A DNA stretch of 63,142 nucleotides from a virus: positions 1 to 63,142 of IMG/VR virus record IMGVR_UViG_3300021085_000001; one strand, 5' to 3'. A program made the translations under genes and the position numbers. This document shows positions 13,352 to 52,261 of the stretch, in pieces. Positions within the stretch are counted from its first letter, which is position 1. Each line of letters begins with the position of its first letter. The notes under the pieces are model-generated. The model had not been told where the DNA came from. It did not search any database and saw only the letters and a list, made by a program, of their open reading frames with translations.

Positions 13352-15838
13352 ATGATTAATAAACAACTCATAAATCTATCATCACCTGCTACTAGCGGAG
13401 GCGGGAGTGGTAATCAAGAAGAAGGATTAATCTTACACTTAGATGCTAATGATGTAGATAGCTACGATGGAGATGGTACAGAATGGGTTGATATAACTAA
13501 CCACGAATATACGCCTACTACCAATGTATCGGAACATTTTAATACTGTTACTTATACTGGAACAGGTACAACGAACCCAATTACGGTCGGGTTTCAGCCA
13601 GATTTAATTTGGATAAAAAATAGAGACCAAACTGATTCTTACGCTATTGTTGATTCGGTAAGAGGTATTACATCTCCTGCACCTTACCTTGCATCAAACG
13701 AAACCAATGCAGAAGCAACATCTACTAATATGCCTACGTCTGTTCAGTCAGATGGTTTTACAATAACTGGAAGCGGCGGTAGAACTAACACAAGTGGAGA
13801 GGATTATGTTGCTTGGTGTTTTAAAGCAGGGGGTGCTCCTAGTGGTTCTGATAAAGTAAGTATAGATGGAACGTCTTATGCCACTATAAGCACAGCTGAA
13901 TTAACAGATGGAACTATACCTATTGATAAATTAAGCGTTAATACTAATCTAGGCTTTAGCATAGTTTCTTACAATGGTAATCAAGTTTCAAATGCAACAG
14001 TTGCTCACGGATTAGGTGTAAAGCCTGAATTGATTATTGTAAAGAATTTACAGTCGGCTGTATCTTGGGGTGTTTGGACTACTGGAATATCAGATAGTGA
14101 AGTTCTTAGACTTGACCAAATAGCAGCAAAAACAACCCCTGCAACTGCTTATTTTGAACCTCAAAACAATACCAGTAATTTTTTCAGTCTTGGAACAAAT
14201 GATGAAACTAATCACAATGACGATTACATAGCTTACTGCTTCGCTTCTAAAAGAGGTGTAAGTAAAGTAGGTAGTTACGTAGGAATAAGCGGAAGTCAAA
14301 AAATATACACGGGATTTGAGCCATCTTTTATTTTAATAAAAAAAACAAATACTTCAACTAATGGAGATTGGGCTGTTTTTGATAATGCTAGAGTTAATGG
14401 AACTGTAAAAGGACAATTATATCCCAGTGTAAATTATGCTGAAGAAAACAGAGATGGCTTAATATCTTTTAACAGAGATGGTTTCACACTAGAGAATAAT
14501 ACAGTTGGTCAAGTACATACAAGCGGACATAGATACATCTACTACGCAATAGCTAAAAACACTAACGAAACATCTCTTATACCAGATACTGATTTAGAGT
14601 TACATTTAGATGCAGCTAGTTTCCCAGAAAAAGGGGAAAGCGGATATAGTAATACTCCATCTACTTGGACTGACTCTAGTGGAAATAGCAATAATGGTAC
14701 TATCACAGGAGCTACGTTTGATTCCGAATTAGGCAACTATTTAGATTTAGACGGCTCTAGCGATAAGATAACTTTTGGTTCATCTGCTATAACTGCATTC
14801 AATTCAAATAATAGAACGGTAGAATTTTGGTTTAAATCTGATGACCTTTCAGCTACAAAAGTGATTTTTATTGCAGATGGAAGTGGTTATAGTTATGGAA
14901 GAACAACAATAATAACAACATCATCGGGTAACATTCAAGTGATGATTGGTAACAACGGGTCTTATCCGAATGTGTCTATAAGTGCAAATACTTGGTATCA
15001 TTTTGCAGTTTCTAAAAGTGGAACTAGCTATGAAGCGTTCTTAGATGGAGAATCAATAGGTACTGCTATCGCAAATACTTGGAACGATACAGTTGCTAGT
15101 CAGCTTAAAATAAGCGGAAATTTAAGCTCAACTTATCCTTTCGATGGGCAGGTAGGGCAGTTAAGATTATACTCTTCAGCACTTACACAAGACCAAATAA
15201 GACAAAACTATAACTTTACTAAGCCTAACTATCCTAATGGGTTTGATGGAGATATAAGCGGTGCTACCTGGAATTCCGCAGGTTACTTTCAGTTTGATGG
15301 TAGTAACGATGAAATAGAATTAACTTCATCACACCCTTATAGTAGCAACGCTGTACAAACTAATAGCGTAAAGTCAATAACGGGTTGGGTTAAGTTAGAC
15401 TCTGGAACTAGAGCAATGCTTTATTCAATATCTTCAACTGCAAACTCAAACTATTATTTTACCTGTCAAGTTAGAAATGATAGTAATGGAGTTTTTATGC
15501 AATGTAGAGATGGAGGCACTACTAATTCATTTATAGACAAAGCAACAAACTCAGCTCCAGATTCTAATTGGCATCACTATGTATTTCAAATAGACGGAGA
15601 TGAAAGACAGATATATATTGACGGAGTAAAAAGAACACTCACAAAAGATAATAGAGGTACAGCAACAGATAGTAGTTGGATTTCTTATCCTACTTATTCA
15701 TCATCTGCAAAACATAAGATACAAAAAGGTAGGGAGATTTCAGCTTATTATGGTACTGGAAAAGTTAGTAAAGTTAAACACTATACCAAACCGTTAACAC
15801 AAGCGGAAATAACAGCTTTATATAACGAAGGAGAATAA
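13352..15838 (+). CDS. Multi-domain fibre protein: DUF7483-like and two LamG-like domains
   Basis: An 828-residue protein. Two DUF7483-like blocks come first: VTYTGTGTTNPITVGFQPDL..IWIKNR with DGFTITG and YVAWCFKAGG, then a second block with VKPELIIVKN and YIAYCFASKRG, plus another half copy with FEPSFILIKK. Two LamG-like jelly rolls follow, near residues 408-620 (LELHLDAASFP, VEFWFKSDDL) and 630-828 (YFQFDGSNDEIEL, HHYVFQIDGDERQIYIDGVK). It is probably a surface-binding fibre or spike, and the last fibre gene before the lysis cassette. Confidence 0.75.
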   Translation: MINKQLINLSSPATSGGGSGNQEEGLILHLDANDVDSYDGDGTEWVDITNHEYTPTTNVSEHFNTVTYTGTGTTNPITVGFQPDLIWIKNRDQTDSYAIVDSVRGITSPAPYLASNETNAEATSTNMPTSVQSDGFTITGSGGRTNTSGEDYVAWCFKAGGAPSGSDKVSIDGTSYATISTAELTDGTIPIDKLSVNTNLGFSIVSYNGNQVSNATVAHGLGVKPELIIVKNLQSAVSWGVWTTGISDSEVLRLDQIAAKTTPATAYFEPQNNTSNFFSLGTNDETNHNDDYIAYCFASKRGVSKVGSYVGISGSQKIYTGFEPSFILIKKTNTSTNGDWAVFDNARVNGTVKGQLYPSVNYAEENRDGLISFNRDGFTLENNTVGQVHTSGHRYIYYAIAKNTNETSLIPDTDLELHLDAASFPEKGESGYSNTPSTWTDSSGNSNNGTITGATFDSELGNYLDLDGSSDKITFGSSAITAFNSNNRTVEFWFKSDDLSATKVIFIADGSGYSYGRTTIITTSSGNIQVMIGNNGSYPNVSISANTWYHFAVSKSGTSYEAFLDGESIGTAIANTWNDTVASQLKISGNLSSTYPFDGQVGQLRLYSSALTQDQIRQNYNFTKPNYPNGFDGDISGATWNSAGYFQFDGSNDEIELTSSHPYSSNAVQTNSVKSITGWVKLDSGTRAMLYSISSTANSNYYFTCQVRNDSNGVFMQCRDGGTTNSFIDKATNSAPDSNWHHYVFQIDGDERQIYIDGVKRTLTKDNRGTATDSSWISYPTYSSSAKHKIQKGREISAYYGTGKVSKVKHYTKPLTQAEITALYNEGE

Positions 15839-25896: not shown

Positions 25897-26601
25897 ATGG
25901 TAAGTATAGACAAAGTTTATAAAACAGTGTTAAACATCCTTAATAAAGAGAATAGAGGGTATATTGTTCCTAGGGAATTCAATACGCTAGCTAACCAAGC
26001 CCAGAATGAAATTTTTGAAGCTTATTTTTCAAAAAGAAATTATGCGGTAACAAACAATTCAGACTATTCTGACATTAGACAGAACATTGAAGAAAAAATT
26101 GCTTTGTTTGAGAATGAAGAAACTGTTGATCAAGCTACTTTTTCAAACGCTGAAGGTAACACTACTAATAGTTATTTTTCTTTTCCTAGCAACTTTTATA
26201 GATTAGGCAACGTATCTTCTAGTGGTATATTAGTTGAAGAAGTTTCTAATAAGAAAATAAACTTTATAAATAGAGCCCCGCTAACCAAACCTACTATTAA
26301 TAGCCCTGTTTACGTTAGACACGAAGGAGGGTTTGTTTTATACCCGACTACAGGTATAACAAGCACTTTAGTTAGCTATATAAGAAAACCCGCCGAACCA
26401 AATTGGATAGGAGGAACATCTGGAGGCCAGGTAGTAGCTAATGAAAGTGCTACAGGTTATCAAAACTTTGAGTTGCATGATTCCGAATTTCATAATTTAG
26501 TAATTAAAGTTTTAGCATATGCAGGAGTTATAATAAGAGCAGCTGACATAACACAAGTAGCGGCAGCAAAAGATCAACAAATACAACAAGCTGAAAAATA
26601 A
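25897..26601 (+). CDS. Head-tail connector / adaptor-like protein
   Basis: A 234-residue protein. An N-terminal helical part, VYKTVLNILNKENRGYIVPR and FNTLANQAQNEIFEAYFSKR, resembles adaptor proteins below portals. A beta-rich middle (FYRLGNVSSSGILVEEVSN; VYVRHEGGFVLYPTTG) and a C-terminal helix follow. It overlaps the next structural gene by one base. Position after capsid suggests a ring between portal and tail tube. Confidence 0.6.
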   Translation: MVSIDKVYKTVLNILNKENRGYIVPREFNTLANQAQNEIFEAYFSKRNYAVTNNSDYSDIRQNIEEKIALFENEETVDQATFSNAEGNTTNSYFSFPSNFYRLGNVSSSGILVEEVSNKKINFINRAPLTKPTINSPVYVRHEGGFVLYPTTGITSTLVSYIRKPAEPNWIGGTSGGQVVANESATGYQNFELHDSEFHNLVIKVLAYAGVIIRAADITQVAAAKDQQIQQAEK

Positions 26602-27533
26602 TGGCAGAATCAAGAAAACTATACAACGAAAGAGGATATTACGCTAAACACCAAGGTGACACAGCTAATGTGCCTACAGATTTTGAAGGATTAGGGTACT
26701 ACAGAAGAACAAACTTGGAAGATGCAGTAAACAACTTTATTGTTGCCTACGTGGGTGACGATAAAGCTTTAGCTAAGGTGCCTAGGTATGAAGTTGAGTT
26801 TTGGGCACAAAGAGGGGTGCAAGAGTTTAGCTATGATATTCTTAATAGTGATAAAAGCATTGAGCTTGAACTTAGTGACGCTCTAACGTTTGCTATTCCG
26901 CAAGACTACGTAGACTATGTAGCAATTTCACGAGTAGAAAAAGACGGTAGTAAGACTAGGCTTATAAATAGCAGAAAAGCAAACAACCCTAAAGCACCTA
27001 TACAAAACTCTGATTACGAAATAACATTTGACTCTGACGACGACATATTAGCTAGTTCTGCTTCTGAGACTGTAGGTAGATTTAAAAATACTAGTAATTA
27101 TATAGAGACCGCTGAGCAGGAGAATAATAGGTATAATGATGATGATTACCCTTATTCTAATAAAAGATATGGAGGTAATCCCGAGGACATGAACTCAGAA
27201 AGCACATTTTTTGTAGATAAAGTTAACGGTATAATCTATTTTGACGGGACGGTTAAAAAAGACAGTTTAATCATTTTAGACTATATTTCTGATGGCTTAG
27301 CAGACAACGGGGATCTAACTAAGGTTTACATACCAAAGCTCGCTGAGGATGCTCTATATGCTTATATATTATATAATTTATCTAAAGTTAGACCTACACT
27401 CGCGGGTATAGTGCCTTTATATAAAAAAGAAGCTAGCTCTAAGATGAGAAATGCTAAAATAAGGTTGTCTAATTACAATCTTCCAGAACTAGCTCAAGTT
27501 TTAAGAGGCAAGTCAAAATGGATAAAACACTAA
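26601..27533 (+). CDS. Tail/neck structural protein
   Basis: A 310-residue protein with a helix-rich N-terminus (LEDAVNNFIVAYVGDDK, EFWAQRGVQEFSYDILNSDK), a beta middle and the helical ending DALYAYILYNLSKVRPTLAG. This order is like that of tail tubular A-type neck proteins of podoviruses and related crAss-like ring proteins. It is followed by an 88-bp gap with a P2 motif before the large tail genes. Confidence 0.6.
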   Translation: MAESRKLYNERGYYAKHQGDTANVPTDFEGLGYYRRTNLEDAVNNFIVAYVGDDKALAKVPRYEVEFWAQRGVQEFSYDILNSDKSIELELSDALTFAIPQDYVDYVAISRVEKDGSKTRLINSRKANNPKAPIQNSDYEITFDSDDDILASSASETVGRFKNTSNYIETAEQENNRYNDDDYPYSNKRYGGNPEDMNSESTFFVDKVNGIIYFDGTVKKDSLIILDYISDGLADNGDLTKVYIPKLAEDALYAYILYNLSKVRPTLAGIVPLYKKEASSKMRNAKIRLSNYNLPELAQVLRGKSKWIKH

Positions 27534-27621: not shown

Positions 27622-29658
27622 ATGGCACAAAGTAAAAGAACTTTTCAAGCTGCTCAAATGAATAAGGATCTTGATGATAGATTAGTCTCTCAAGGAACTT
27701 ATAGAGACGCTTTAAATGTCAGTGTTGCTTTCTCTGAAGACGGTAATGTAGGCGCTTTAGAAAACCTAAAGGGAAACGAACTGATAGCTAATCAAAATAT
27801 AACAGGGCTTAGCGCTGTGTCTAATCCAAATGCTGAGGTTGTTGGTAGTATAGCTCACCCGGAAGAAAATAAAATTTATTATTTTGTATCAGGTGATAAT
27901 TCAGACGGTATATTTGAATACGATGTTGAAGCAAATACCATATCTACCATAATAATCGACAGCTCTTCGCCGCCGCCAGCACCTGTACAGTTAAAATTTA
28001 CATTTGCCAACTCCTTAGCACAGGCTTCTGTAGCTATTAATGGAGCAATTACCGTATCTTCTAGTTTAGGCGAAATAGAAAGTATTACACAAGACTTTAA
28101 CGAAACGGTTACCACTGATACATTAAGAACTATCTCAGTTAGAGTTAAGGTTCCTAATGGATATAGTAATAAAAATAGCTACGTTAGTGGTACTCTAACA
28201 GCTACCCAGCAAGCTATTGCGGCACCAATTGTATCGTCAATTACTATTTTAGAGCCGACCAATATAACAAGCACCTCTGTTACTTTAAACGGAAAATATA
28301 CACAGGACGCGGCTTCGCTCACAGATGTAGGCTTTTACTATGCTCCCAATACAGGCGGTTCTAGTCCCGCTAGTTTGTATTCTAATAAATTTGTTATATT
28401 AGATTTAATTGGTAGCAGTGCTAATATATCCAGTGGAGCTCCTAATTGGACAGACCCATTCGATACAGTTGAGCCAGGCGATATAACCGTTACAGATGGA
28501 AACGGAGACATAATAGCTTCTAGCAATTATGTATACGAACGTTTCTATGGTGCACAACCTTCTGTAATAACCTTTAATGACGATTATTTAGCTATACTCC
28601 CGGTTACGGTTGCGCAGACTAGCACGTTAACTACAGTATCTGATGCTTTAACAAGTACTCAAATAGTTTCTACAGGAACCCAAGTTTCGTTATCAAGTGC
28701 TATAACATCGCCCTTTAAAGCTGATATAACAAGTTTATCATCAAGCACTGAGTATACCGCAGTTGCTTATGTTACTAATGCGCTAGGCACAACTTATAGT
28801 GATATCGTAACATTTAGTACTGAAGCAGTAGCCGTCCCCACATACAACGCTCTACCAGACGATAGAATTTTTATTTTTCCAACAGCTGACGACACTCAGT
28901 ACGGAGCTAACCTTTATCCTGGGTATAGAGAATTTGAAAAAAACGGAGGAGACTTTTATTTTGCTGCAGTAGCTTCAAAAGCCTCAGGATTATATAATGA
29001 TTATAATGATTTAACCTCAGGGGTAACATGGTCAAATTTAGGAGTTAATTTTACTTACAACGATACAGAAACCCAAAACTATGCAAAAACTAGTTCCGTT
29101 AATGTTTCAACTTCTTCAGCGGGAGTATACACTATCACTGCCGCTAAAAGCGGTTTAACATCGGGGACTACACAAATAGTTGTTGGCAGCCCCGCAGGAA
29201 CGCGTTATAAATCAACATTTACATTAAACTTTGCAAAAACAGGCACAGGCACAGTTCCGTTTGTTGCTGAATTTGACCACAATGTTAGCACCGCTCTCCA
29301 TTGGAACGCAGCGCCTGCTGAATTGGCTGAATTTTCTATCGGACCATTTAATCAAGGCCAAGATGGCGCTATAATGATACCTTTATCCACTGACAATAGT
29401 GTTGCAATCGCTCCAACCGGAACTACTACTGCTAAGTTTAACAACAATACGTTTAATCCAGAAAATTTAGATGTTTCTATTTCAGGAAAAACTGAAGGGG
29501 TTGATTTTGAATACTATATAGCTACTGAAGCGATGAGTATATGGGGAGGGACTGGTATAGGACCTGTGCCTGCAGTTATAATAGAAGCCGACCCTTATGT
29601 GTTAAACGGAGGGACTGCTAACGTTACTCACACTTTAAATATAACTTATAATTATTAA
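27622..29658 (+). CDS. Tail stabilisation/hub protein, N-terminal part with Ig/Fn3-like extension
   Basis: A 678-residue protein. Residues 1-125 (FQAAQMNKDLDDRLVSQGTY, GNVGALENLKGNELI, GSIAHPEENKIYYFV, IFEYD) match the start of the large stabilisation/hub protein of Bacteroidota podoviruses. Instead of the expected continuation, the rest is Fn3/Ig-like beta sequence (NITSTSVTLNGKYTQ, VGFYYAPN). The missing continuation appears at the start of the 29884 ORF. A short gene separates them. It probably forms a tail hub with surface-exposed domains. Confidence 0.65.
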   Translation: MAQSKRTFQAAQMNKDLDDRLVSQGTYRDALNVSVAFSEDGNVGALENLKGNELIANQNITGLSAVSNPNAEVVGSIAHPEENKIYYFVSGDNSDGIFEYDVEANTISTIIIDSSSPPPAPVQLKFTFANSLAQASVAINGAITVSSSLGEIESITQDFNETVTTDTLRTISVRVKVPNGYSNKNSYVSGTLTATQQAIAAPIVSSITILEPTNITSTSVTLNGKYTQDAASLTDVGFYYAPNTGGSSPASLYSNKFVILDLIGSSANISSGAPNWTDPFDTVEPGDITVTDGNGDIIASSNYVYERFYGAQPSVITFNDDYLAILPVTVAQTSTLTTVSDALTSTQIVSTGTQVSLSSAITSPFKADITSLSSSTEYTAVAYVTNALGTTYSDIVTFSTEAVAVPTYNALPDDRIFIFPTADDTQYGANLYPGYREFEKNGGDFYFAAVASKASGLYNDYNDLTSGVTWSNLGVNFTYNDTETQNYAKTSSVNVSTSSAGVYTITAAKSGLTSGTTQIVVGSPAGTRYKSTFTLNFAKTGTGTVPFVAEFDHNVSTALHWNAAPAELAEFSIGPFNQGQDGAIMIPLSTDNSVAIAPTGTTTAKFNNNTFNPENLDVSISGKTEGVDFEYYIATEAMSIWGGTGIGPVPAVIIEADPYVLNGGTANVTHTLNITYNY

Positions 29659-29660
29659 CT

Positions 29661-29882
29661 ATGCCTCAATTTACAATAAGCCCGCAAACTGCTATTATAG
29701 CGGAAGTATCTTTTATACCAAATGTTGATATACAAGTTAATTCTATTCAGAATATACATGCTTTAGAACTTACTTTTGGTGTTAATGATATAATAAGTGC
29801 TAACACTAAGGTTAATATACTAGAGGGATACGCTTCTATGGGTTTTACCCCAAAAGTTGTTGTTGATTACACAGAAATATAA
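29661..29882 (+). CDS. Small beta protein between split tail genes
   Basis: A 73-residue protein, MPQFTISPQTAIIAEVSF..., beta-rich with no known motif. It lies two bases after the 27622 gene and one base before the 29884 gene, so it is part of the same tail module. It may be a remnant linker domain or a separate small tail component. I do not recognise it. Confidence 0.55.
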   Translation: MPQFTISPQTAIIAEVSFIPNVDIQVNSIQNIHALELTFGVNDIISANTKVNILEGYASMGFTPKVVVDYTEI

Positions 29883-29883
29883 T

Positions 29884-32800
29884 ATGGGAAGTTTTATACT
29901 AAATTTTGATAAGAATAGGCTTATAACAGGAGCCAATATCGTTGATAACATACTTTACTTTACAGACAACGAAACAGAACCTAAAAGAATAAACCTTGAA
30001 GTCTTTAAGGCCGCAGACCATTCAAACGGTACTACATCTGTATATGGTAGACAATTTTTAGAAAGAGATATAACCGTTATAAGGCCTCATCCTCAAGCCG
30101 TAATTAACTCTAACCTATCACAGGAAGTTGATATTCCTATTGATGCTGTTGAGCCTTTGGTTTTAACTGGCGCTGCAGATGTTTTTAACGACTTCGTAAA
30201 ACTAAATGGTTCAGCAATTAATGCAGGAACCGTTTTTGTAAAAAGAGGATTTTATTATCGCGAATATATAAATGGGGCAACACCTTCTTTAGAAACAGTT
30301 ATATCAGAGGGCACTAAAGTAGAATCTGATTTAAATGGCTTTGGTTTTTCTTCAGAAGTGTCTTTGTCTGTTAATAAAAAATATCATTACGTAGCATACG
30401 CTAAGTCGCAAGTAGGCTCTGCTATTTACGGTGATGTTGTTGCATTTAAAACCAATGCCATCACTGTAGATTTCCCCTCCGTAACCACGGTCGGTCATGA
30501 AAAAATAAGCAATCTTTCGTATAGGTTGAAAGGAAAAGTAACTGATGAAGGTGGTTCACAAGTAACTGAAGTCGGTATATATTACTATTTTTTAGATTTT
30601 TTAAACAGTTCAACTCCTCCAAGCACACTTGTAGGAAATTCGAACAACGCGATAACGGGTGCAAATAAACAAACAGCTTCATATAATATTGATACTGGTG
30701 AATTTTTTATAGATATAGCTATACCTCCCGCTTCAATATTTTATTATCAAGCTTATGCTGTTAATGTCGAGTCTGGACAAGATGAAGGCTTAGTCAAAAA
30801 TCAGTTAGTTGCTGTAACGGAAGCTCCGGAAGTGCAGTTAGAAGATTGCGAAATTTTTAATAATAAAGCAATACTTAGAGCTAAAGTCACAAGAGCTAAC
30901 GGTAATCTAACAGAAAGGGGGTTTTATTTTAGCAAGACGTCGAACAATCTATTTACCATGGTAGCCACTCACGCTACCGACTCTAACATATTTAAAGTTA
31001 GTGTACCAATGACCCCAAACACGTCTTTAGATGCTTATTTGTATGACACTATAGCTGAGTCTGGGTTATCATTAACCAAAGGAGATACTTTATATATAGC
31101 CGCATACGCTTCTAATGGAGCTGAGCGACAAACAGGAATATTGCCCTTAACTATAAGAGATGCTGAAATTGACCCTCCTTCTGTTTCCACAAACAATGTA
31201 GAGATAGTTGACAACAACGGCAATTCTAGGTTGAGGTGTACTGGCTACAACAACGCACCTGACTATCAAAGTGTTCAAAGCTTAGGTTTCTATATAACTA
31301 GAAACGAATCTGGGGAAGAATTAGGTGTAGATCAAGCTGCAAAAAAAGCAGAAATGATTAGACGTTTCAACACGTTTCCTAGAACGGCTACGGAAATAAT
31401 TGCTCAAAAAACAATAGGATTTATAACACAACCGAATACCGATATAGGTCTTTTTGTTGATTCGTTTGATGGTAATAATGAAGTGCCTTTGGAGCCAGGA
31501 TACGATTATTATGTTATGGCTATAGCATTTAACGGTGGCGTTCTTGGCACTGGAGATGTTGTAAATACACCTACAAAAACAGAAGCTGAAGCACCACCAG
31601 TATACACCCGGCAAACAAACCCTGCGACTTTAACTAGCGGAACAATGCGTGGTACTGTAGAATTTGACGACGACCCCACTGTTAAAGTAGCTTTAGACGA
31701 TGCTGGTTTCACATACGCTGCAGGGGAAAGTGGCACTTTAAAAGTTGCCCATATTTCAATATCCAGTGGGGATTTAGCTACTTTAAACACGTTTATAACA
31801 ACAGGTGTTGGTAGTGGAAATTTTAACGTTTTAAAAAGTGGGCTGCAACAAGATACATTATACAAAGTGCAAGCTTACGTAACGCCTTCAGGCGGATCAA
31901 AGGTATATGCTAAATTTGATCATGACGAACAAGGCACATATGGCGACGGAATAACTCGTTTTAGAACGTTAAAACCAACAACCACACTTCCTAAGCTTAC
32001 CGCAACATTAAAAACTACACAAAGGACTACTGCAAAAGTTAGAGGTAATCTAACTAACGACGGAGGCTCAGGTATGTCGCTACAAGCTATGCAACCTGTT
32101 TTTTATTATGCTACTAAAGCGATTACGGTAGGATCTACTGATGCGCAAAAAATAGCCAATATAATAACCCAAGTTGGAACAAACCAGCCAACCGCAACGT
32201 TGGGCAAACTAGGAGCAGATTTTGATTATAATCAAGATCCTCCAAATCCATCTTTAGCAAATGAAGCTTTTGTTACAATAGGAGGTGCACAAGAGCATAT
32301 AGCTAGTTCAACATCAACACCTTTACTCAACAACACAGAGTATTACTTCTTCATGTCAACTACCGTTTCAAATGGAGCGGGCACAACTAGTAGTAATCTA
32401 AATGAGTTTAAAACGTTAGCGCCGGTAGCAACAACACCTATAATAAATCCCGTAGTAGTTTCTAACATAGCTGAAACAAATGTATGGGTAGGAGCTACAG
32501 TAATATCTAGCGGAGGAAATGCGGATTATCACAATAGAACCGTAGGGTTTTATTATATAAAAAAATCAGATTTACCCGCTTCTTATGACCCTAATAATGG
32601 CTTAACTGCAGCAACATCATTAATAGCTGATGCTGACAAAGCTTTTGCGGCTCAAGCTAGATTTGGAGGTACTTATTTAGGCTCTAAAAACTTAACATCC
32701 TTAGAGCCTAATACAGAATACTATGTTATTGCGGCTGTAGAAAATAGTGTAGGTGTTGGATACAGTACTAAAGCCACGTTATTCAAAACAAAAGGAGTAT

Positions 32801-33180
32801 CTGTTCCTGATTCTATATCAATAAATGGACTAAACACATTTTGGTTTGATAAAAACGGTAGAGCTATAGACGAAAATGCTGTTTCTTTTACAACTACACC
32901 GTCTACTGCATCTGTAGTTGCAATAGTACAATCATATTGGTCGCCTTCAACAGGGGGAGCGCGTGTGCCTTCTGTGCTTTTAGAAAGATCATCTAACGGT
33001 AGCACGTTGCTAACCATAGATTGTCCGGAAAATAACAGTAATTCTGCTAGGGAAATATACATAACTTTAGCACACTCACTAACACCCGGGGTGACTAGGA
33101 GAATAAAAATAATTCAGCAAGCTGGATCCGGAAGTGGCTTTGACGATGGTGACGGCCCAGATATAGCCGCACAACTATAA
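29884..33180 (+). CDS. Tail stabilisation/hub protein, central part with Fn3-like array and BACON-like end
   Basis: A 1098-residue protein; the start at ATG 29884 follows the TAATATG junction. Residues 1-70 (SFILNFDKNRLITGANIVDN, LYFTDNETEPKRINLEV, ERDITVIRPHP) are the second block of the classical hub protein. About seven Fn3-like units of roughly 95-130 residues follow, each with a ...VKxGFYY-like strand (KRGFYYRE, TEVGIYYYF, TERGFYFSK, QSLGFYITR, DDAGFTYAAG, VFYYATKA, TVGFYYIKK). The end (SFTTTPSTASVVAIVQSYW to RRIKIIQQAG) resembles a BACON domain. Confidence 0.65.
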   Translation: MGSFILNFDKNRLITGANIVDNILYFTDNETEPKRINLEVFKAADHSNGTTSVYGRQFLERDITVIRPHPQAVINSNLSQEVDIPIDAVEPLVLTGAADVFNDFVKLNGSAINAGTVFVKRGFYYREYINGATPSLETVISEGTKVESDLNGFGFSSEVSLSVNKKYHYVAYAKSQVGSAIYGDVVAFKTNAITVDFPSVTTVGHEKISNLSYRLKGKVTDEGGSQVTEVGIYYYFLDFLNSSTPPSTLVGNSNNAITGANKQTASYNIDTGEFFIDIAIPPASIFYYQAYAVNVESGQDEGLVKNQLVAVTEAPEVQLEDCEIFNNKAILRAKVTRANGNLTERGFYFSKTSNNLFTMVATHATDSNIFKVSVPMTPNTSLDAYLYDTIAESGLSLTKGDTLYIAAYASNGAERQTGILPLTIRDAEIDPPSVSTNNVEIVDNNGNSRLRCTGYNNAPDYQSVQSLGFYITRNESGEELGVDQAAKKAEMIRRFNTFPRTATEIIAQKTIGFITQPNTDIGLFVDSFDGNNEVPLEPGYDYYVMAIAFNGGVLGTGDVVNTPTKTEAEAPPVYTRQTNPATLTSGTMRGTVEFDDDPTVKVALDDAGFTYAAGESGTLKVAHISISSGDLATLNTFITTGVGSGNFNVLKSGLQQDTLYKVQAYVTPSGGSKVYAKFDHDEQGTYGDGITRFRTLKPTTTLPKLTATLKTTQRTTAKVRGNLTNDGGSGMSLQAMQPVFYYATKAITVGSTDAQKIANIITQVGTNQPTATLGKLGADFDYNQDPPNPSLANEAFVTIGGAQEHIASSTSTPLLNNTEYYFFMSTTVSNGAGTTSSNLNEFKTLAPVATTPIINPVVVSNIAETNVWVGATVISSGGNADYHNRTVGFYYIKKSDLPASYDPNNGLTAATSLIADADKAFAAQARFGGTYLGSKNLTSLEPNTEYYVIAAVENSVGVGYSTKATLFKTKGVSVPDSISINGLNTFWFDKNGRAIDENAVSFTTTPSTASVVAIVQSYWSPSTGGARVPSVLLERSSNGSTLLTIDCPENNSNSAREIYITLAHSLTPGVTRRIKIIQQAGSGSGFDDGDGPDIAAQL

Positions 33181-33191
33181 AAAAATAAATA

Positions 33192-36100
33192 ATGGCAGAT
33201 AAAAAACTACCTTTTGAAAAGATTTTTCCATACTTTAGTTATAGATGGAGGTATGAAGATGGGCAATATTCTCCATATGCTCCGTTTAGTAAGGTAAATT
33301 TTTTCCCTAAAGACCCAGATGTAGAGGAATACTTTAAGAAGGGTCATAATACATCAATATCAAATACCGTTGAGTCTATAAACCTTGGCGGTATTGATAA
33401 AGGAGGGCCTGACGTTGTTGCTGTAGACGTGCTATACACAGAATCGCTGTCTAGCACTGTTTATATATTAAAAACAATAGAAATACCACAAGCAGAAAGA
33501 GGCAACGGAGCAGAATTAAAGATACAGGTTAATAAGCGATCGTTTGCATCTGCATTACCAGACTCACAACTATCTAGAGCATATGATAATGTTCCTTTAA
33601 AAGCAAAAGCTCAAGAGGTTACTGCTAATAGATTAATGTACGGTAATTATGTACACCAATTTGATCAACAACCTTTAAATATAGTTGTAGGCGTTAAGTC
33701 ACTTGGAGCTGACCCGTTAAATGGTCCTCATATTAAAGGCAATAGAACCTATAACGTTGGCGTTGTTTATATTGATAAATATGGTAGATATGGCAATGTA
33801 ACAACGCAAGAAGCTGCTACTGTTAGTGAACAAGGCTCTTCTATAAAAACAGAATTTACAACAAAATTTAGATCTACATTAACAGCTAAAATTTCCAGCG
33901 AAGCTCCAGAATGGGCGGTTTATTATAGGTACTTTGTTAAAGACGTGTCTGGTGAACACTTTAATTTGTCTGCATTTAATGTATATAACGATGGTGCTAC
34001 TGGTGATGGTGATTCTGATAACGTTTACCTTCAGTTCAATTCTTCCGATAGGAATAAAATCACAGATGATACTATTCTAATACCAAGGAGAATAAATGAT
34101 GCTACCGACCAGCAAATACTTACTTCTGAATCAAGACACCCTGTTTTAGATATAGAGAACGAAGCGCCGGATATTGTTAAGAGTCAAGTTAATGAAAGAA
34201 TTTTATCATCTGCTGGCATATCCATTACCGACGAATATGGTAACACTTATGATCCTCTTCTAGCTGTTGGCTCTGGAGGAAGTTTAGGTAGCTCTAATCA
34301 CCCTACGGTCGTTGGAGATACTCAAATAGCAATAGGAGATACATCTAATGGTTTTGGAAGTGTAATAGCTAATATAAACAAATACATATTATCTCAAGAC
34401 CCAGATGCAACTCAATTCGCAATAGAATCTGGATCTGCTAGCTCCAGCCTTCCTGATCAAATTATAGATATATCTGGCTATGCTGATCGTTTAGCTCTTA
34501 AGTTTAAAGCTAGATATAAACAAGATGACGCTCAGTACACTACGTCACCGTGTTTGGTTGACTCTATTAAATTCATAGCTACGAATGGTAATAAGAAAAA
34601 ACGTAACTTAATTGTATTTACTATATCTACTAGATTAGATGAAGGTGGTAGTCCTTTAGAAGGCACAGGTGCTGGAGACGGGTTAGACAAAGGCGGTCAT
34701 ACTATGGATGGCGGGCCAAAACGCGAAGACTTAAAGTTTTACAAACTAGGTTTATCTGAAGAAGGACAGGACAAACTAAAAGGTTCGTTTTTTGTAAAAG
34801 TACCGCGTGAAGTTGCTAATAACAGCGCTGTGCCTATATTACCAACTTTTCAAACTGAATTTGATGAAGATGGTAAAGTTTCTATAATAAAAGAATTAAA
34901 CTTTGAGACAGAACCCGTTCAGGACTCTAATATAGACTTGTATTGGGAATCTAGTAAAACATACTATATTGATAGGGACCATGGTTCTTTGAATAGCGTA
35001 GATTTTGCAAATTGCATTGGAACAGCAGAGCCATCTACTGGAAATATATATCTAGAATCAGTTAAACTTTTTGATAAATTTAATTCAATAGAAATTTCTA
35101 AGGGAGTACGTGTTAACACCCCTGCTAATAGATTTGCAGAAGAGAATAGAAAAGCTGGATTAATATTTTCGGGGCTATATAATTCAAAAACAGGTGTTAA
35201 TGAGCTTAACCAGTTTAATGCGTCTGTGGGCATAACTAAAGAGTTAGAACCTAATTATGGCGGAATACAAAAACTATTTGCTTTAGATACTAATCTTATT
35301 GCTTTTGCTGAAGACAAAGTATTTAGAATATTAGCTGATAAAGATGCTCTTTTCAACGCTGATGATGGCGTTAACGTTACAGCTACTAATTTAGTTTTAG
35401 GACAGTCTATGGTTTATCAAGGTAACCATGGTATGAGCAAGAACCCTGAGTCTTTTGCTTATTTTAGAAATAACATATACTTTACTGACGCTAAAAGAGG
35501 TAGCGTTCTACAGCTCACGCCTGCTAATGGTCAAATATTCCCGATAAGCACTAGGGGGATGAACAACTTTTATAGAGATCGCATAGGTACAGCTGATAAG
35601 CTTATAGGTATGTATGATGGAGCTAAAAACACTTATACTTTATCAATGCAAGGGTATGACAATACTGAAGCATCTATTGGCTCTGAAACGCTTCCTGGAG
35701 AAACAACAGATATTACAATAGGTTATAATATACGAACCGAAGGTTGGACATCACGATATAGCTTTATTCCTGAGTCAGGTGTTACAATGAACAATAAGTT
35801 TTACACATTTAAAAATGGCAACGTTTATTTACATAACTCCAACACGGCTAATAGAAACAATTTTTACGGTACAGACTACAGCTCTGAGGTGGAAATTATT
35901 TTTAATGACAACCCTACCAACGTTTCAGACTTTTTAACATTGAACTATGAAGGCGATTCAGGTTGGGAAGCGGTTAGTATTATTGGGGACCAAGACGGTA
36001 CGCATAACATAACAGATGTTAGGTTGCTTGATTCAGATGAAAGCGGTTTTTTAGGATGGTTTTTAAAAGAAGGCAAGTATCACGGAGCAATTGTAGGTTC

Positions 36101-36296
36101 GCAGCCGGTTTATATAATAGACCCGGCAGGAACTATTGGAGCAGACGGGTTTTGGCCGCTAATACAAGACGGGAACAACACACAAGATGTTTCTGGTACT
36201 AAAGGTTTCTTTGCTAAAGTAAGATTTAAAAACTCTGCAACCACAGCTAAAGAACTTTTTGCTATAACTACAGAATATTATATTAGTCAAAATTAA
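33192..36296 (+). CDS. Tail stabilisation/hub protein, C-terminal part
   Basis: A 1034-residue protein. LPFEKIFPYFSYRWRYEDGQ, YSPYAPFSKVNFFPKDPDVE and FKKGHNTSISNTVESINL are the third block of the hub protein of related phages. The C-terminal half includes a likely beta-propeller-like region (QKLFALDTNLIAFAEDKVFR, NPESFAYFRNNIYFTDAKRG, QIFPISTRGMNNFYRD). It probably caps the tail. It is encoded separately here rather than fused to the 29884 product. Confidence 0.7.
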   Translation: MADKKLPFEKIFPYFSYRWRYEDGQYSPYAPFSKVNFFPKDPDVEEYFKKGHNTSISNTVESINLGGIDKGGPDVVAVDVLYTESLSSTVYILKTIEIPQAERGNGAELKIQVNKRSFASALPDSQLSRAYDNVPLKAKAQEVTANRLMYGNYVHQFDQQPLNIVVGVKSLGADPLNGPHIKGNRTYNVGVVYIDKYGRYGNVTTQEAATVSEQGSSIKTEFTTKFRSTLTAKISSEAPEWAVYYRYFVKDVSGEHFNLSAFNVYNDGATGDGDSDNVYLQFNSSDRNKITDDTILIPRRINDATDQQILTSESRHPVLDIENEAPDIVKSQVNERILSSAGISITDEYGNTYDPLLAVGSGGSLGSSNHPTVVGDTQIAIGDTSNGFGSVIANINKYILSQDPDATQFAIESGSASSSLPDQIIDISGYADRLALKFKARYKQDDAQYTTSPCLVDSIKFIATNGNKKKRNLIVFTISTRLDEGGSPLEGTGAGDGLDKGGHTMDGGPKREDLKFYKLGLSEEGQDKLKGSFFVKVPREVANNSAVPILPTFQTEFDEDGKVSIIKELNFETEPVQDSNIDLYWESSKTYYIDRDHGSLNSVDFANCIGTAEPSTGNIYLESVKLFDKFNSIEISKGVRVNTPANRFAEENRKAGLIFSGLYNSKTGVNELNQFNASVGITKELEPNYGGIQKLFALDTNLIAFAEDKVFRILADKDALFNADDGVNVTATNLVLGQSMVYQGNHGMSKNPESFAYFRNNIYFTDAKRGSVLQLTPANGQIFPISTRGMNNFYRDRIGTADKLIGMYDGAKNTYTLSMQGYDNTEASIGSETLPGETTDITIGYNIRTEGWTSRYSFIPESGVTMNNKFYTFKNGNVYLHNSNTANRNNFYGTDYSSEVEIIFNDNPTNVSDFLTLNYEGDSGWEAVSIIGDQDGTHNITDVRLLDSDESGFLGWFLKEGKYHGAIVGSQPVYIIDPAGTIGADGFWPLIQDGNNTQDVSGTKGFFAKVRFKNSATTAKELFAITTEYYISQN

Positions 36297-36299
36297 TTT

Positions 36300-36785
36300 A
36301 TGAGTCTTATAAAATCAAATCAAAAAGTAACAAACGTATTTTCTAAAAAAAATATTTCAGAGCTATTAAAAAAAATATACTCTTCAAAATCGAACGAATC
36401 ACTTATTCATAACAACGGTAAAATATGCAGGGAGGGTGGTGATTTGTTTGACTTAGAGCATGAGCTAGTGGATGGACTATATTTAAGAAGAATGAGCTTA
36501 AACAAAGGAACGGGTATAATTAGTGGCATACATAAGAGAGACCATGTTTGGATACTATTACAAGGAAGCATTAAAGTTTCCTCTGAACTGGGAGAAGAAG
36601 AGTACTTAGCACCGTGGGTAGGTTACTCACCAGCAGGCACTCAGCGACTCATATACGCTAACGAACGTTCGGTGTTTCAGAACGTTTTTAAAAACCCAAA
36701 AAATCTAACTTATTTAGATGATTTAGAGGATTACAACTACTGTACTACTATAGAGGAGTACGAAAAATATAAAAAAAATAATTAA
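36300..36785 (+). CDS. Cupin-fold protein
   Basis: A 161-residue protein. Its middle, ISGIHKRDHVWILLQGSIKV, then APWVGYSPAGTQRLIYANER and VFQNVFKNP, follows the two cupin motifs of a single-domain jelly roll seen in short phage proteins. His539-type metal residues are only partly present (H at IHKRDH). It may be structural rather than enzymatic. It lies between tail and internal virion genes with three-base spacing. Confidence 0.65.
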   Translation: MSLIKSNQKVTNVFSKKNISELLKKIYSSKSNESLIHNNGKICREGGDLFDLEHELVDGLYLRRMSLNKGTGIISGIHKRDHVWILLQGSIKVSSELGEEEYLAPWVGYSPAGTQRLIYANERSVFQNVFKNPKNLTYLDDLEDYNYCTTIEEYEKYKKNN

Positions 36786-46663: not shown

Positions 46664-48415
46664 TTATCCGTCGCAGCTTAAACAATCTGGATCCATTGCA
46701 GCTGCCGCAATATCACCTCTTAATACTGATTCTGTTCTTGTGTAGTACAGTGTTTTAACACCACGCTTCCAAGCTTCCATATGTACTGTGTTCATCCATT
46801 TAGGAGTTGCTTCTGATGGAAATGCTAAATTCAAACTAACAGACTGGTCTATGTAGTCCTGTCGTATACCTGCTTGCTTAACTAGTTCTAACTGATTTAT
46901 CTCTTTAAATGTTTTGAATACGTTCTTTACTTTTTCGTAATCTTCCGCATGCTCTTGGGTAAGTCTTCCTGAGTGATCGTAAAACCATCCATCGAGTTCT
47001 TTAATGTCCTGAACGGATCCACCATCTGACATAATCTTGTCCCAAGTTTCTTTATTATCGATTCCAACTTTTCTTAATACTTTTTTAAGTTCTTTATTTT
47101 TTCTAATAAACGTACCTTTAGCTGATTGTTCTGTGAACACATTAGCAGCCCAAGGCTCAATACCTGGTGAAACGTTACCAGAAAGTTTTGAGTTAGATAC
47201 GGTTGGCGCTACAGCTCTTAAATGAGTGTTACGCATACCAGTACCAACACACCATAAAGGTTCTCCATAAACTTCAGCTAATTTTCTAGAAGCTCTTTCA
47301 GTTTCTATTTTTATCTTTGAGAATATCTCTCGGGTTTTGAACTGTGCCATTAACCCTTCGAAAGCGATCCCGTTCTTCTGAAGTAAGCTGTGCCAGCCCA
47401 ACACTCCTAATCCTAGGGCCCTTCCCTTTACAGCTGATCTCACAGAATTCTCGAATCCCCTCAGACCCTTCGCTCTCTGAATGAATTCTTCCAGGACACC
47501 GTCCAGGAACCAAGTCGCATCGTACACTAGATTTGTATCCTTCCATTCGTCGTATTTTTCTAAGTTTAATGATGATAAACAACAAACAAAACTGTGAGAC
47601 TCATCAGTATGAAGAGTAATCTCAGAGCAAATGTTTGTCATATGTACTTTTAATCCGTTCGCTTTGTAAGCTTCTGGATTAGCTTTGTTCGTGTTGCCTT
47701 TAAAGAGGATATATGGCTCACCAGTTGCTTTACGCTTTTGGATAAGTTTACTCCATTTTTGCCTTGCTTCTTGGTCTCCCGTTTCAAGCTTTCGCATAAA
47801 CTTATCGCCAACGACAGCACACTGATGTAAGTTAAGAGATTGCCTGTTGACGTCTCCTTTAGGTTCCCTAATTTCAATCCAATCGAGGAAGTCAGGGTGT
47901 TCAATATTGATATTAACTGATGCAGCTCCTCTTCTAACTGCACCTTGGTTTGTTGCGAGTATAGTTGAGTCGTAGATTTTGCAAAAAGGGACAACTCCGT
48001 CTGAAGTTCCATTACCTGTTATTCTGGCACCTGCGGGTCTAATCATATTAATACCTACTCCTACACCGCCGCCATGTTTAGCTAGGAGCATCATTTCTAA
48101 ATTTTTAGTTCCAATATCTGCTATAGAATCCGCAACATCAATACCGAAACAACTAATAGGCAAGCCACGATCAGTACCAGTATTACTCAGCACTGGACTA
48201 GCCAAACACAACCATCCTTTCCATATATAGTTAAAGAATACCTCCGCAAGCTCTGGTTTATATAATCTTCTTGCAACAGATTTTGAAACTCTTTCATATG
48301 CGTCTCTTGGTGTTTCTCCATCAAGCAAATATGACCCTCCAATAGTTTTTTTATAAACTTCAGTGTCTCCCCACTCTGGGTAGTCTTCACCTTTTTTCCA
48401 TGCACTATTCCACAT
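46664..48415 (-). CDS. nrdA: Ribonucleoside-diphosphate reductase alpha subunit, short class I type
   Basis: A 583-residue catalytic subunit that makes deoxynucleotides. Seen: SCFG (C89), TNICSEI (N261, C263, E265), CCLSSLNL (C278/C279), the radical-transfer pair YYTRT (Y557, Y558) and the C-terminal CLSC redox pair (578, 581). The protein starts where the 10-stranded barrel begins: the N-terminal ATP cone is missing, so dATP feedback is probably lost. A segment at about 47330-47560 has unusually G+C-rich codons. It is co-encoded with nrdB. Confidence 0.93.
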   Translation of the reverse strand: MWNSAWKKGEDYPEWGDTEVYKKTIGGSYLLDGETPRDAYERVSKSVARRLYKPELAEVFFNYIWKGWLCLASPVLSNTGTDRGLPISCFGIDVADSIADIGTKNLEMMLLAKHGGGVGVGINMIRPAGARITGNGTSDGVVPFCKIYDSTILATNQGAVRRGAASVNINIEHPDFLDWIEIREPKGDVNRQSLNLHQCAVVGDKFMRKLETGDQEARQKWSKLIQKRKATGEPYILFKGNTNKANPEAYKANGLKVHMTNICSEITLHTDESHSFVCCLSSLNLEKYDEWKDTNLVYDATWFLDGVLEEFIQRAKGLRGFENSVRSAVKGRALGLGVLGWHSLLQKNGIAFEGLMAQFKTREIFSKIKIETERASRKLAEVYGEPLWCVGTGMRNTHLRAVAPTVSNSKLSGNVSPGIEPWAANVFTEQSAKGTFIRKNKELKKVLRKVGIDNKETWDKIMSDGGSVQDIKELDGWFYDHSGRLTQEHAEDYEKVKNVFKTFKEINQLELVKQAGIRQDYIDQSVSLNLAFPSEATPKWMNTVHMEAWKRGVKTLYYTRTESVLRGDIAAAAMDPDCLSCDG

Positions 48416-48578
48416 GCTCTAACTGCTTTTCGTTAAATATGTGTAACATACCATTATAATTCATTTCTCCAACTATACGTGTATCTCCGCCTGTTGTTTT
48501 AAAAATAGACACTATGGTAGCTGGAAATTTATACCCTTTAGGTTTATAAACTTTGTCTCCTATTTTAAATTTATCCAT
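48405..48578 (-). CDS. Small conserved phage protein (KVYKPKGYKFPATIVSIF family)
   Basis: A 57-residue protein, MDKFKIGDKVYKPKGYKF with a beta-rich remainder and ending MLHIFNEKQLEHVE. It looks like an SH3/KOW-like single domain found as a short gene in many phages. The function is unknown. It overlaps the nrdA start by 11 bases and the next upstream gene by eight, so it is translated within the nrd operon. Confidence 0.7.
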   Translation of the reverse strand: MDKFKIGDKVYKPKGYKFPATIVSIFKTTGGDTRIVGEMNYNGMLHIFNEKQLEHVE

Positions 48579-48927
48579 TTGTCATTAAATATATTATGTA
48601 ACCAATTGTTACGTTGAAATTAACCATTACTAGGTTCCATTGTTTTGCAACCCAAACTTGCGGTGTTGAAACAATACCACCTATTATATAAGTAATAGCA
48701 CCAATATTACCATAAGGCAAAAGATATGGAGATACCATTATAAAAGCTGTTCCCATATACCCTAACCTATTTGCAATACGTTCTTTAGCGCTAAGTCTTC
48801 TGTCTTGCACTAATAATCTTAAAAAGCTTTTCTTCCATCTAAATTCACACTTAGAGCAAGTTTTCTTTCCGTCATGTTTAAATTTAGAATTGCTTTTCTT
48901 TTTCTTACAAATATTACACTCTCTCAT
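48571..48927 (-). CDS. Zn-ribbon plus membrane protein
   Basis: A 118-residue protein. Start taken at the ATG of TAATG, overlapping nrdB's stop. CNICKKKKSNSKF and CSKCEFRWKK form a CxxC...CxxC zinc-ribbon; then three hydrophobic segments (LGYMGTAFIMVSPYLLPYG, IGAITYIIGGIVSTPQVWV, LVMVNFNVTIGYIIYLM). The membrane part resembles short conserved proteins of marine phages. Function is unknown. Confidence 0.6.
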   Translation of the reverse strand: MRECNICKKKKSNSKFKHDGKKTCSKCEFRWKKSFLRLLVQDRRLSAKERIANRLGYMGTAFIMVSPYLLPYGNIGAITYIIGGIVSTPQVWVAKQWNLVMVNFNVTIGYIIYLMTNG

Positions 48928-49895
48928 TACCACATATCTTCAAAATCTTCTCCTTCACCTGCTTTGGAATAATCAGTAGGACGAACAGCAAAAAAATCAG
49001 TATGGGTAACCCCACCAGTAAGATGGTAGAACCAGTCGAGGTTGTTTGCTCCTGCTTCATCAAATGCAAAGTATTGCCCGAGGTCGAGGTAACCGAGTTC
49101 TGATAGTTTTTCATTTAATCTTTTTCTAATAAACTGTTTTAAATCGTATGCTTTAATGCCTTCAATGTCTCCCATCTCAAACATCTTATCTATGTACTTT
49201 TCTTCAGCCGTGAGCATTGTTTTAGCGGCTTCTAAGACATCTTCTCTGCACCCCTCTAATAATGTATCATCTTCTTCGCACATATGTCTAAAAAGCTGAC
49301 AACCCATTTTAGAATGAAGAGACTCATCTCTCACAGACCACTTCATTTGTTGCCCAATACCTTTAAGTAAATTACGTAACTGAAAAGAATACAATACAGC
49401 AAAAGCACTATATAACGATACACCTTCAGCGAAAGCTGAGAAAATGGCCAAGGAGCGGCCAATAGACCTGGGGTTATTATCAGTAGTAGCAACAAGATTA
49501 TCAAATCTCTCAGATGTCGCAGGTTCGTGTAAAAACGCTTCATAATCTTCTAAGCCTAATGTTTCATTTAAATAACTATAAGCTACAGCATGAATAGTTT
49601 CTTGCGAGCCAAACATCATAGCCATCTGTTGTATCTCATGCTTAGGAAACCAACCAACAACTTTTTGCGTCCAATAATCAGAAACAGCACACTCTGTTTG
49701 CGCAAATCCTAATAATATATTACCTACTAAATGTTTTTCTTTTTCTGTTAGCTTTTCGTTCCAATCCTTTAGGTCACCTGACATAGGTATTTCGGTGTGT
49801 AACCAGAATGCTTGAGCCTGTTTAAGCCATCCCTCAGTATAGTACTCTGGGTATTCGAACGGCTTATATGCAATTCTTTCATCAAATAATCCCAT
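48927..49895 (-). CDS. nrdB: Ribonucleoside-diphosphate reductase beta subunit
   Basis: A 322-residue radical-generating subunit. The di-iron ligands can be traced: E68 (QTE), E99 and H102 (SQETIH), E157 (AFAEG), E191 and H194 (RDESLH). Tyrosine Y106 (HAVAYSYL) is at the radical site four residues after H102, so a class Ia/Ib-type stable tyrosyl radical is expected. It pairs with nrdA two small genes downstream. Confidence 0.93.
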   Translation of the reverse strand: MGLFDERIAYKPFEYPEYYTEGWLKQAQAFWLHTEIPMSGDLKDWNEKLTEKEKHLVGNILLGFAQTECAVSDYWTQKVVGWFPKHEIQQMAMMFGSQETIHAVAYSYLNETLGLEDYEAFLHEPATSERFDNLVATTDNNPRSIGRSLAIFSAFAEGVSLYSAFAVLYSFQLRNLLKGIGQQMKWSVRDESLHSKMGCQLFRHMCEEDDTLLEGCREDVLEAAKTMLTAEEKYIDKMFEMGDIEGIKAYDLKQFIRKRLNEKLSELGYLDLGQYFAFDEAGANNLDWFYHLTGGVTHTDFFAVRPTDYSKAGEGEDFEDMW

Positions 49896-51028: not shown

Positions 51029-51372
51029 TATTTTACATTTGTATATGTTACATTAATATCTCCAGGGTACATAGTTGTTGTAGTTGTACCTAATGAATCA
51101 GGTGGACCAGGGTCTGGTGTAGACGCTATAGTATCTTCTTCAAGATAGTCTTTAAGTATCTTATCGGCTAATACGTCAGTGACTTCATTTTTTAGTTTTT
51201 CAATATAGTTAGCAGCATCAAGTAGTTCTTCTTGTAAATGATTAAGCCATTTGTGTAAACCAGGCTCATCATCGTGAAGCGTTACACCATATTTTTTGTA
51301 ACCTACAGAGCTACGCTCGTCTAATCTTTTGATTACTTGTTTTACTATTTGATCTTGTGTAGTTATCTTCAT
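51028..51372 (-). CDS. MazG-like all-alpha NTP pyrophosphohydrolase-like protein
   Basis: A 114-residue protein. The first 65 residues (RLDERSSVGYKKYGVTLHDD; WLNHLQEELLDAANYIEKL) follow the helical, acidic pattern of phage MazG-like proteins. The tail is Pro/Thr-rich and of different character. It lies directly after the GIY-YIG/MazG fusion, so the operon has two related folds. Substrate unknown. Confidence 0.6.
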   Translation of the reverse strand: MKITTQDQIVKQVIKRLDERSSVGYKKYGVTLHDDEPGLHKWLNHLQEELLDAANYIEKLKNEVTDVLADKILKDYLEEDTIASTPDPGPPDSLGTTTTTMYPGDINVTYTNVK

Positions 51373-52178: not shown

Positions 52179-52261
52179 ATCTTTTTTTTATTTTTTCTAT
52201 TATTTCTAGACTCTCCTTGTTTAAAAACTGACCCATATAGTTGTTTTTAGTAAACCATAGT

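What the first reader, a model, noticed from the sequence alone, without database searches (positions are those of the whole stretch)
27622..36296. Tail hub protein split into three ORFs with large Fn3-like insertions
Three consecutive blocks that form one polypeptide in related Bacteroidota phages (MNKDLDDRLV...GNVGALEN; ILNFDKNRLITGANIVDN; FPYFSYRWRYEDGQYSPYAPF) begin three separate genes here. The first two ORFs then run into Fn3/Ig-like domains (about seven in the second) and a BACON-like end. The gene seems cut exactly where surface domains were added, giving a hub whose parts carry separate decorative arms.
Basis: partly seen in the sequence, partly recalled or inferred. Interest (0 to 1): 0.75.

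Follow-up and report, generated by a model that had tools for sequence, protein, structure and literature searches.

The report
Phage tail muzzle split into pieces
In a group of uncultured viruses of Bacteroidota bacteria, the protein that forms the tip of the tail, one chain in nearly all relatives, is made from three or four consecutive genes, and two of the pieces carry long chains of antibody-like domains that probably reach out to grip the host.

Summary
ORFs A (27622-29658), B (ATG 29884-33180) and C (33192-36296) begin with three blocks that lie consecutively in one polypeptide in most relatives, including Cellulophaga phi38:1 gp97 and the solved muzzle gp44 of crAss001. A fourth ORF, S (29661-29882), sits between A and B. 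The protein is better called the tail muzzle (nozzle) than a hub: Pfam crAss_MUZ and crAss_MUZ_C match A and C, and the model of C best matches the crAss001 muzzle structures. The cuts fall between propeller blades 1 and 2 and between blade 2 and IG1. A and B continue as arms; B has seven Fn3-like repeats and a terminal beta-sandwich.

Of 109 non-redundant relatives, 83 are one ORF and 21 share the A|B|C split. Those form one clade whose sister is cut only at the first site. Fused relatives carry smaller inserts at the same two sites. The severed cores are under strong purifying selection (dN/dS 0.03-0.10), while the arms diverge fast.

Most likely the chains are made by coupled translation and assemble as one muzzle protomer with two adhesive arms, each tethered at one end. 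Assembly and arm function are inferred. New variant of a known kind.

The parts
27622..27960 (+). Chain A, muzzle core (propeller blade 1 region, N-terminus of the muzzle)
   Evidence: PF25731 crAss_MUZ positions 7-61 at 27.0 bits, equal to the curated cut-off; phrog_14478 positions 2-105 of 1474; aligns with crAss001 gp44 residues 8-97
27961..28245 (+). Chain A arm, first domain (about 95 aa, conserved in all 21 split relatives, BACON-like by eye)
   Evidence: alignment; no Pfam match
28237..28827 (+). Chain A arm, one Fn3-like repeat with a long insertion
   Evidence: profile of the B repeats, 68.6 bits
28828..29658 (+). Chain A arm, distal part, then stop TAA 29656-29658
   Evidence: ORF; arm only 24% identical (median) within the split clade against 69% for the core
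29661..29882 (+). ORF S, 73 aa, small beta-rich protein with conserved C-terminus (V/I)xYTEI
   Evidence: ATG 2 nt after the A stop; homologues in the same place in 16 of 21 split members
29884..30099 (+). Chain B, muzzle core (propeller blade 2)
   Evidence: aligns with crAss001 gp44 112-160; 46-87% identical to other clade members; dN/dS 0.03
30151..32793 (+). Chain B arm: seven Fn3-like repeats (B residues 90-192, 196-304, 313-414, 429-565, 569-677, 702-846, 850-970)
   Evidence: profile hits of 42-69 bits; AlphaFold2 chain of beta-sandwiches; Foldseek to Ig/FnIII chains
32800..33153 (+). Chain B arm, terminal beta-sandwich (BACON-like by eye, ending IKIIQQAG)
   Evidence: AlphaFold2 strands 977-1078; no Pfam match
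33192..36296 (+). Chain C, rest of the muzzle (IG1, IG2/crass region, remaining blades)
   Evidence: PF25729 crAss_MUZ_C 30.6 bits against cut-off 27; Foldseek best hits 7qol and 7qok, phicrAss001 muzzle, E 1e-22
29656..29663 (+). A/S junction: TAA CT ATG (TAATG overlap in several relatives)
29880..29886 (+). S/B junction: TAA T ATG
33178..33194 (+). B/C junction: stop and start 11 nt apart
25897..27533 (+). Two virion genes upstream; the first matches a phage adaptor profile, as expected next to a muzzle
   Evidence: PF24175 SU10_adaptor, E 1.4e-5 but just under cut-off; phrog_14543 and phrog_13977

Best explanation
This is a naturally split tail muzzle. An ancestral single-chain muzzle gained long beta-sandwich insertions at two exposed sites of its beta-propeller: between blades 1 and 2, and between blade 2 and IG1. 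The gene was then cut at the C-terminal side of each insertion, first at the blade 1/2 site, later at the blade 2/IG1 site. The result is consecutive genes A-S-B-C translated by stop-start coupling. A (blade 1) and B (blade 2) most likely dock non-covalently onto C (IG1, IG2, crass region, remaining blades) to rebuild the usual muzzle protomer, six per tail. Because each arm is tethered at one end only, the virion shows up to twelve long arms at the tail tip, which probably act as fast-evolving adhesins for the Bacteroidota surface and may help signal opening of the muzzle gate. Shown by sequence: homology, cut sites, order of events, coupling geometry, purifying selection on the cores, rapid arm divergence. 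Inferred: co-assembly, stoichiometry, and arm function.
For: Fused relatives: 83 of 109 non-redundant loci carry all blocks in one ORF. Homology to the muzzle: crAss_MUZ on A and crAss_MUZ_C on C; A, B and C-terminal blocks map in order on gp44 8-97, 112-160 and 1049-1293; the C model's top PDB hits are the phicrAss001 muzzle, then tail chains of SU10 and cyanophage A4 and, lower down, T7 and P22. [quoted passage not shown] Stepwise history: the split loci in the tree form one clade (support 1.0); its sister L022 is A | arm ORF | BC-fused (0.99); the next outgroup (1.0) is fused, without inserts at the two sites. Chain pieces are functional: dN/dS 0.10 (A core), 0.03 (B core), 0.12 (C) for window against L086; median identities 69, 58 and 54-67% against 24% (A arm) and 13% (B arm). 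Coupling: stop-to-start distances 0-37 nt, often TAATG. Arms: 5-7 Fn3-like repeats in every B arm of the clade and one (two in L018) in nearly every A arm.
Against: No virion of the split clade has been isolated, so no proteomics exists. The isolated B core is predicted with low confidence (block pLDDT about 31-60), which fits a fragment needing partners but proves nothing. No multi-chain model could be run, and the arms' receptor is unknown. The SU10 nozzle carries four Ig-like domains at the same blade 2/3 site that straighten to lengthen the tail (PMC9509320), so the B arm could be mechanical rather than adhesive. The window has other tail-fibre-like genes.
Confidence: 0.75

Rival explanations
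1. The chains assemble as above, but the arms are structural: like the Ig-like nozzle domains of phage SU10 they reorganise on attachment to extend the tail or guide ejection, rather than bind a receptor.
For: [quoted passage not shown]
Against: C still matches the crAss001 muzzle with its own IG and crass parts. B arms are only 13% identical within the clade, more like a host-facing variable surface. Unlike in SU10, the arm is free at one end.
Confidence: 0.2
2. The split is a relaxed, nearly neutral fission: the cuts have no function and persist because fragments reassemble well enough; the arms are incidental.
For: Cuts arose more than once at different places, one of them (L138/L139) without a long arm; fission at flexible loops is a plausible neutral outcome.
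Against: B arms of 1000 aa or more have been kept by all 21 members, and arm reading frames show dN/dS well below 1 (0.16-0.17 window against L086). The clade's two cuts sit exactly at the arm ends.
Confidence: 0.15
3. The pieces are joined after all, by recoding (stop readthrough or frameshifting), RNA splicing or protein splicing, giving one giant muzzle chain.
For: Overlapping TAATG junctions could in principle allow a -1 shift; some crAss-like phages recode stops (PMC12386605).
Against: B has its own ATG 1 nt after the S stop; S is in another frame; the junction stops seen are TAA; no evident slippery heptamer in the junctions printed; no Rfam intron in the window; B and C begin directly with muzzle sequence, so there is no split-intein half.
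Confidence: 0.04
4. Assembly or sequencing artefact breaking one gene.
For: Frameshift errors do split phage genes; Maribacter phage Panino's muzzle is broken inside a conserved motif.
Against: Same layout in 21 non-redundant loci from different samples and in a separately assembled MAG, with clean stop-start junctions.
Confidence: 0.01

Closest known systems
Crassvirus tail muzzle gp44 of phicrAss001 (PDB 7qok, 7qol; Pfam PF25731 and PF25729)
   Same: Core blocks A, B and C map in order; same fold for C (Foldseek E 1e-22); Ig-like insertion between blades 2 and 3
   Different: gp44 is one 1371-aa chain with no long arms; here it is three core chains plus S, with about 560- and 1030-aa arms
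Single-chain muzzle of Cellulophaga phi38:1 gp97 (Pervagoviridae) and Flavobacterium elemo phages
   Same: Same gene order (portal, major virion protein, adaptor-like genes, muzzle) and homologous blocks, annotated as a virion structural protein
   Different: One ORF of 1324 or 1470 aa with no arms at the two sites
Nozzle protein of Escherichia phage SU10
   Same: Propeller nozzle with a chain of Ig-like domains between blades 2 and 3 and an extension on blade 1
   Different: One chain; four domains; matched here by fold only
BACON/Ig tandem-repeat tail proteins of crAssphage (PMC6949934) and Ig-like phage adhesins (PMC13370021)
   Same: Tandem beta-sandwich domains near the tail, proposed or shown to mediate surface binding
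   Different: In the passages read these are separate ORFs located near tail or structural genes, not arms on severed muzzle blades

Membership tests
Crassvirus-type tail muzzle protein | Sequence match to the muzzle families crAss_MUZ and crAss_MUZ_C | tested here: met
   A 27.0 bits (cut-off 27) and C 30.6 bits (cut-off 27); fused relative L045 62.0 and 46.2 bits
Crassvirus-type tail muzzle protein | Muzzle fold (propeller with IG1, IG2 and crass domain) | tested here: met
   Model of C (pLDDT 74, pTM 0.58) best matches 7qol and 7qok, TM 0.44-0.45 of query; blades 1 and 2 assigned by sequence only
Crassvirus-type tail muzzle protein | Gene lies directly after ring/adaptor genes in the tail module | tested here: met
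   SU10_adaptor-like gene two genes upstream, synteny with phi38:1 and Panino
Crassvirus-type tail muzzle protein | Single polypeptide protomer | tested here: not met
   Three core ORFs (plus S in most) in the window and all 21 clade members; filed therefore as a split variant
Crassvirus-type tail muzzle protein | Homohexamer at the tail tip | not testable with these tools
   needs a virion or a multi-chain model
Order Crassvirales (the phage) | Belongs to the order by hallmark genes | not tested
   63-kb record; the named relative phi38:1 is listed under Pervagoviridae without that order
Fibronectin type III domain | Pfam fn3 (PF00041) above curated cut-off | tested here: not met
   Consensus 14.2 bits against 25; best Fn3-fold family 22.5 against 30; fold matches to Ig/FnIII chains, so 'Fn3-like' only
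BACON domain | Pfam BACON match | tested here: not met
   No BACON hit at E<=10 in A or B

The most novel reading that the evidence does not exclude
A viral beta-propeller gatekeeper built in nature from three separately translated chains, blade 1, blade 2 and the rest, giving a hetero-oligomeric muzzle (6A+6B+6C, perhaps with S) with twelve free-ended, exchangeable arms at the tail tip, reached through a visible series of insertion and fission steps.
Probability: 0.65. Interest if true: 0.72.

Novelty: new variant of a known kind. Interest (0 to 1): 0.62.

Why it matters
The muzzle is described as a highly conserved gatekeeper of crassviruses (PMC10172136). Here it tolerates cuts between propeller blades while gaining very long surface arms. 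The series fused, fused with inserts, cut once, cut twice, within one phage group, makes testable how a loop insertion becomes a separate subunit, and whether freeing one end of an arm helps host binding. It also warns annotators: A and B would be called hypothetical or generic adhesin genes although each holds a propeller blade.

Tried and rejected
Introns: no Rfam match in the whole window. Recoding or readthrough: rejected from the junction sequences. Split intein: B and C start directly with muzzle residues. PDB sequence search with profiles of C gave nothing significant; the match came from fold comparison and from a wider profile against gp44. Homology between fused-chain inserts and split-clade arms: nearly none (a few weak cross hits, for example window A arm with the L157 insert, E 2e-4), so the arms were replaced or acquired separately. 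The idea that a cut always follows a long insert was rejected: L138/L139 are cut without a long arm, and at the second site insert sizes overlap (352 aa cut in L162, 431 aa uncut in L144). Paper searches for a previously described split muzzle or nozzle found none in the held library; this does not prove absence elsewhere.

Full report
WHAT IS THERE. The window is a 63,142-base IMG/VR virus record. Between the adaptor-like genes and the genes for putative internal virion proteins lie four consecutive + strand ORFs: A 27622-29658 (678 aa), S 29661-29882 (73 aa), B 29884-33180 (1098 aa from its ATG) and C 33192-36296 (1034 aa).

IDENTITY. It is the tail muzzle (nozzle). Chain A hits Pfam crAss_MUZ at its cut-off and C hits crAss_MUZ_C. 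Profiles of the A, B and C-terminal blocks hit the solved crAss001 muzzle gp44 in order: residues 8-97, 112-160 and 1049-1293. The AlphaFold2 model of C (pLDDT 74) has the two phicrAss001 muzzle entries as best PDB matches (E 1e-22), followed by SU10 and cyanophage A4 tail chains, with T7 and P22 tail entries further down. In gp44, IG1 (from residue 163) sits between blades 2 and 3 (PMC10172136). So the first cut falls between blades 1 and 2, and the second between blade 2 and IG1.

FUSED RELATIVES. phi38:1 gp97 (1324 aa) and an elemo phage protein (1470 aa) are single chains. Viral contigs were gathered with the C and B alignments and scored with iterated profiles of the blocks. Of 109 non-redundant loci holding all blocks, 83 are one ORF, 21 (the window included) are A|B|C, one is A|BC (L022), two are AB|C (L122, L162) and two are cut later in C (L138, L139). 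These counts depend on the patterns used to search and are not population frequencies. In one-ORF members the A-to-B spacing is about 0-12 or about 90-150 aa (one, L107, has an insert inside the A block), and the B-to-C spacing is about 10, 100-140, or up to 431 aa. In the split clade the spacings are 545-830 and 1004-1343 aa. The same two sites therefore accept domains in intact chains.

HISTORY. In a tree of the C blocks (71 taxa) the split members form one clade (support 1.0). Its sister is L022 (0.99), which is cut only at the first site and has an extra arm ORF of about 505 aa between A and BC. The next outgroup (1.0) is fused with no insert at the two sites. The order read from this is insertion and cut at site 1, then at site 2. 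A second cut at site 2 arose independently in L122/L162, next to L144, which has a 431-aa insert in one chain. L107 shows a recent event: 93% DNA identity to L025 up to the site, then about 1465 extra in-frame bases in a blade 1 loop.

THE PIECES ARE FUNCTIONAL. Within the split clade, median identity is 69% (A core), 58% (B core) and 54-67% (conserved parts of C), against 24% (A arm), 13% (B arm) and 33% (S). Between the window and L086 (the same contig as L001), dN/dS is 0.10, 0.03 and 0.12 for A core, B core and C, and 0.16-0.17 for arms and S (synonymous sites are near saturation in some parts). A core and B core are thus held as tightly as the rest of the muzzle, as expected if they still form part of it. 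Junctions are tight in all 21: stop and start overlap (TAATG) or lie within 37 nt. S is present in 16 of 21, with a conserved end (V/I)xYTEI in most; in L012, L014, L015 and L102 the A chain is cut once more.

THE ARMS. A profile from the seven repeats of the window's B arm finds 5-7 copies in every B arm of the clade and one or two in nearly every A arm, and none in the fused-chain inserts. The consensus resembles Fn3-fold families below their cut-offs, and the B model, a string of beta-sandwiches, matches multi-domain Ig/FnIII proteins. Global TM-scores are low, so this supports domain type only. The terminal domain is a beta-sandwich; 'BACON-like' is by eye.

HOW IT MOST LIKELY WORKS. Coupled translation makes A, S, B and C side by side. 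A and B cores dock as blades 1 and 2 on C. Each arm, free at its far end, extends from the outer side of the muzzle (in SU10, blades 1-3 face away from the channel; PMC9509320). Fast arm divergence with conserved cores points to host contact. Adhesion is the favoured role; SU10-like tail extension is the main rival. Assembly, stoichiometry and function were not tested.

INDEPENDENT CHECK. A contig from a Bacteroidetes MAG in the genome collection (L167) has the same layout, including a 76-codon frame in the S position and seven plus one repeats. It supports the reality of the split and hints at a Bacteroidota host.

VERDICT. Observation confirmed; interpretation right in outline, with a better name, a fourth gene, exact cut sites and an evolutionary order. 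New variant of a known kind.

Noticed in passing
L107 8412-9877 compared with L025 9609-9649: Two phages 93% identical in DNA upstream differ by a recent in-frame insert of about 475 codons in a blade 1 loop of the muzzle; the chain stays intact.
   Followed up: partly
L138 14650-14668 and L139 14547-14558: Independent clean cut of the muzzle chain much further downstream, without a long arm.
   Followed up: partly
L162 10164-17885: AB|C muzzle whose C chain (2573 aa) ends in many GCxDxxAxNYxxxAxxDDGSC-like repeats; L022 chain A has two similar units.
   Followed up: no
L006 (Maribacter phage Panino) 12223-12286: The muzzle reading frame is broken inside a conserved motif, which looks like a frameshift or sequencing error rather than a clean split.
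   Followed up: no
window 36300-36785: The slot after the muzzle is variable: a short tail fibre-like protein (phrog_12032) in the window and a similar protein in L004, a different, acetyltransferase-like ORF (by eye) in L001, an annotated glycosidase in MW202828.
   Followed up: partly
window 6002-10651 and 13352-15838: Two further putative tail fibre genes; the second carries DUF7483 and Laminin_G_3 (lectin-like) domains.
   Followed up: partly
window 3715-5310: Phage-encoded GroEL-like chaperonin (Cpn60_TCP1, 210 bits).
   Followed up: no
window 46664-49895 and 51372-53092 (- strand): Nucleotide metabolism cluster: ribonucleotide reductase large and small subunits, thymidylate synthase, and a MazG domain joined to a T5orf172 domain.
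   Followed up: no
window 29661-29882 and relatives in 16 loci: Small ORF S has an unusually conserved C-terminal YTEI/YTEL in most members; its role is unknown.
   Followed up: partly
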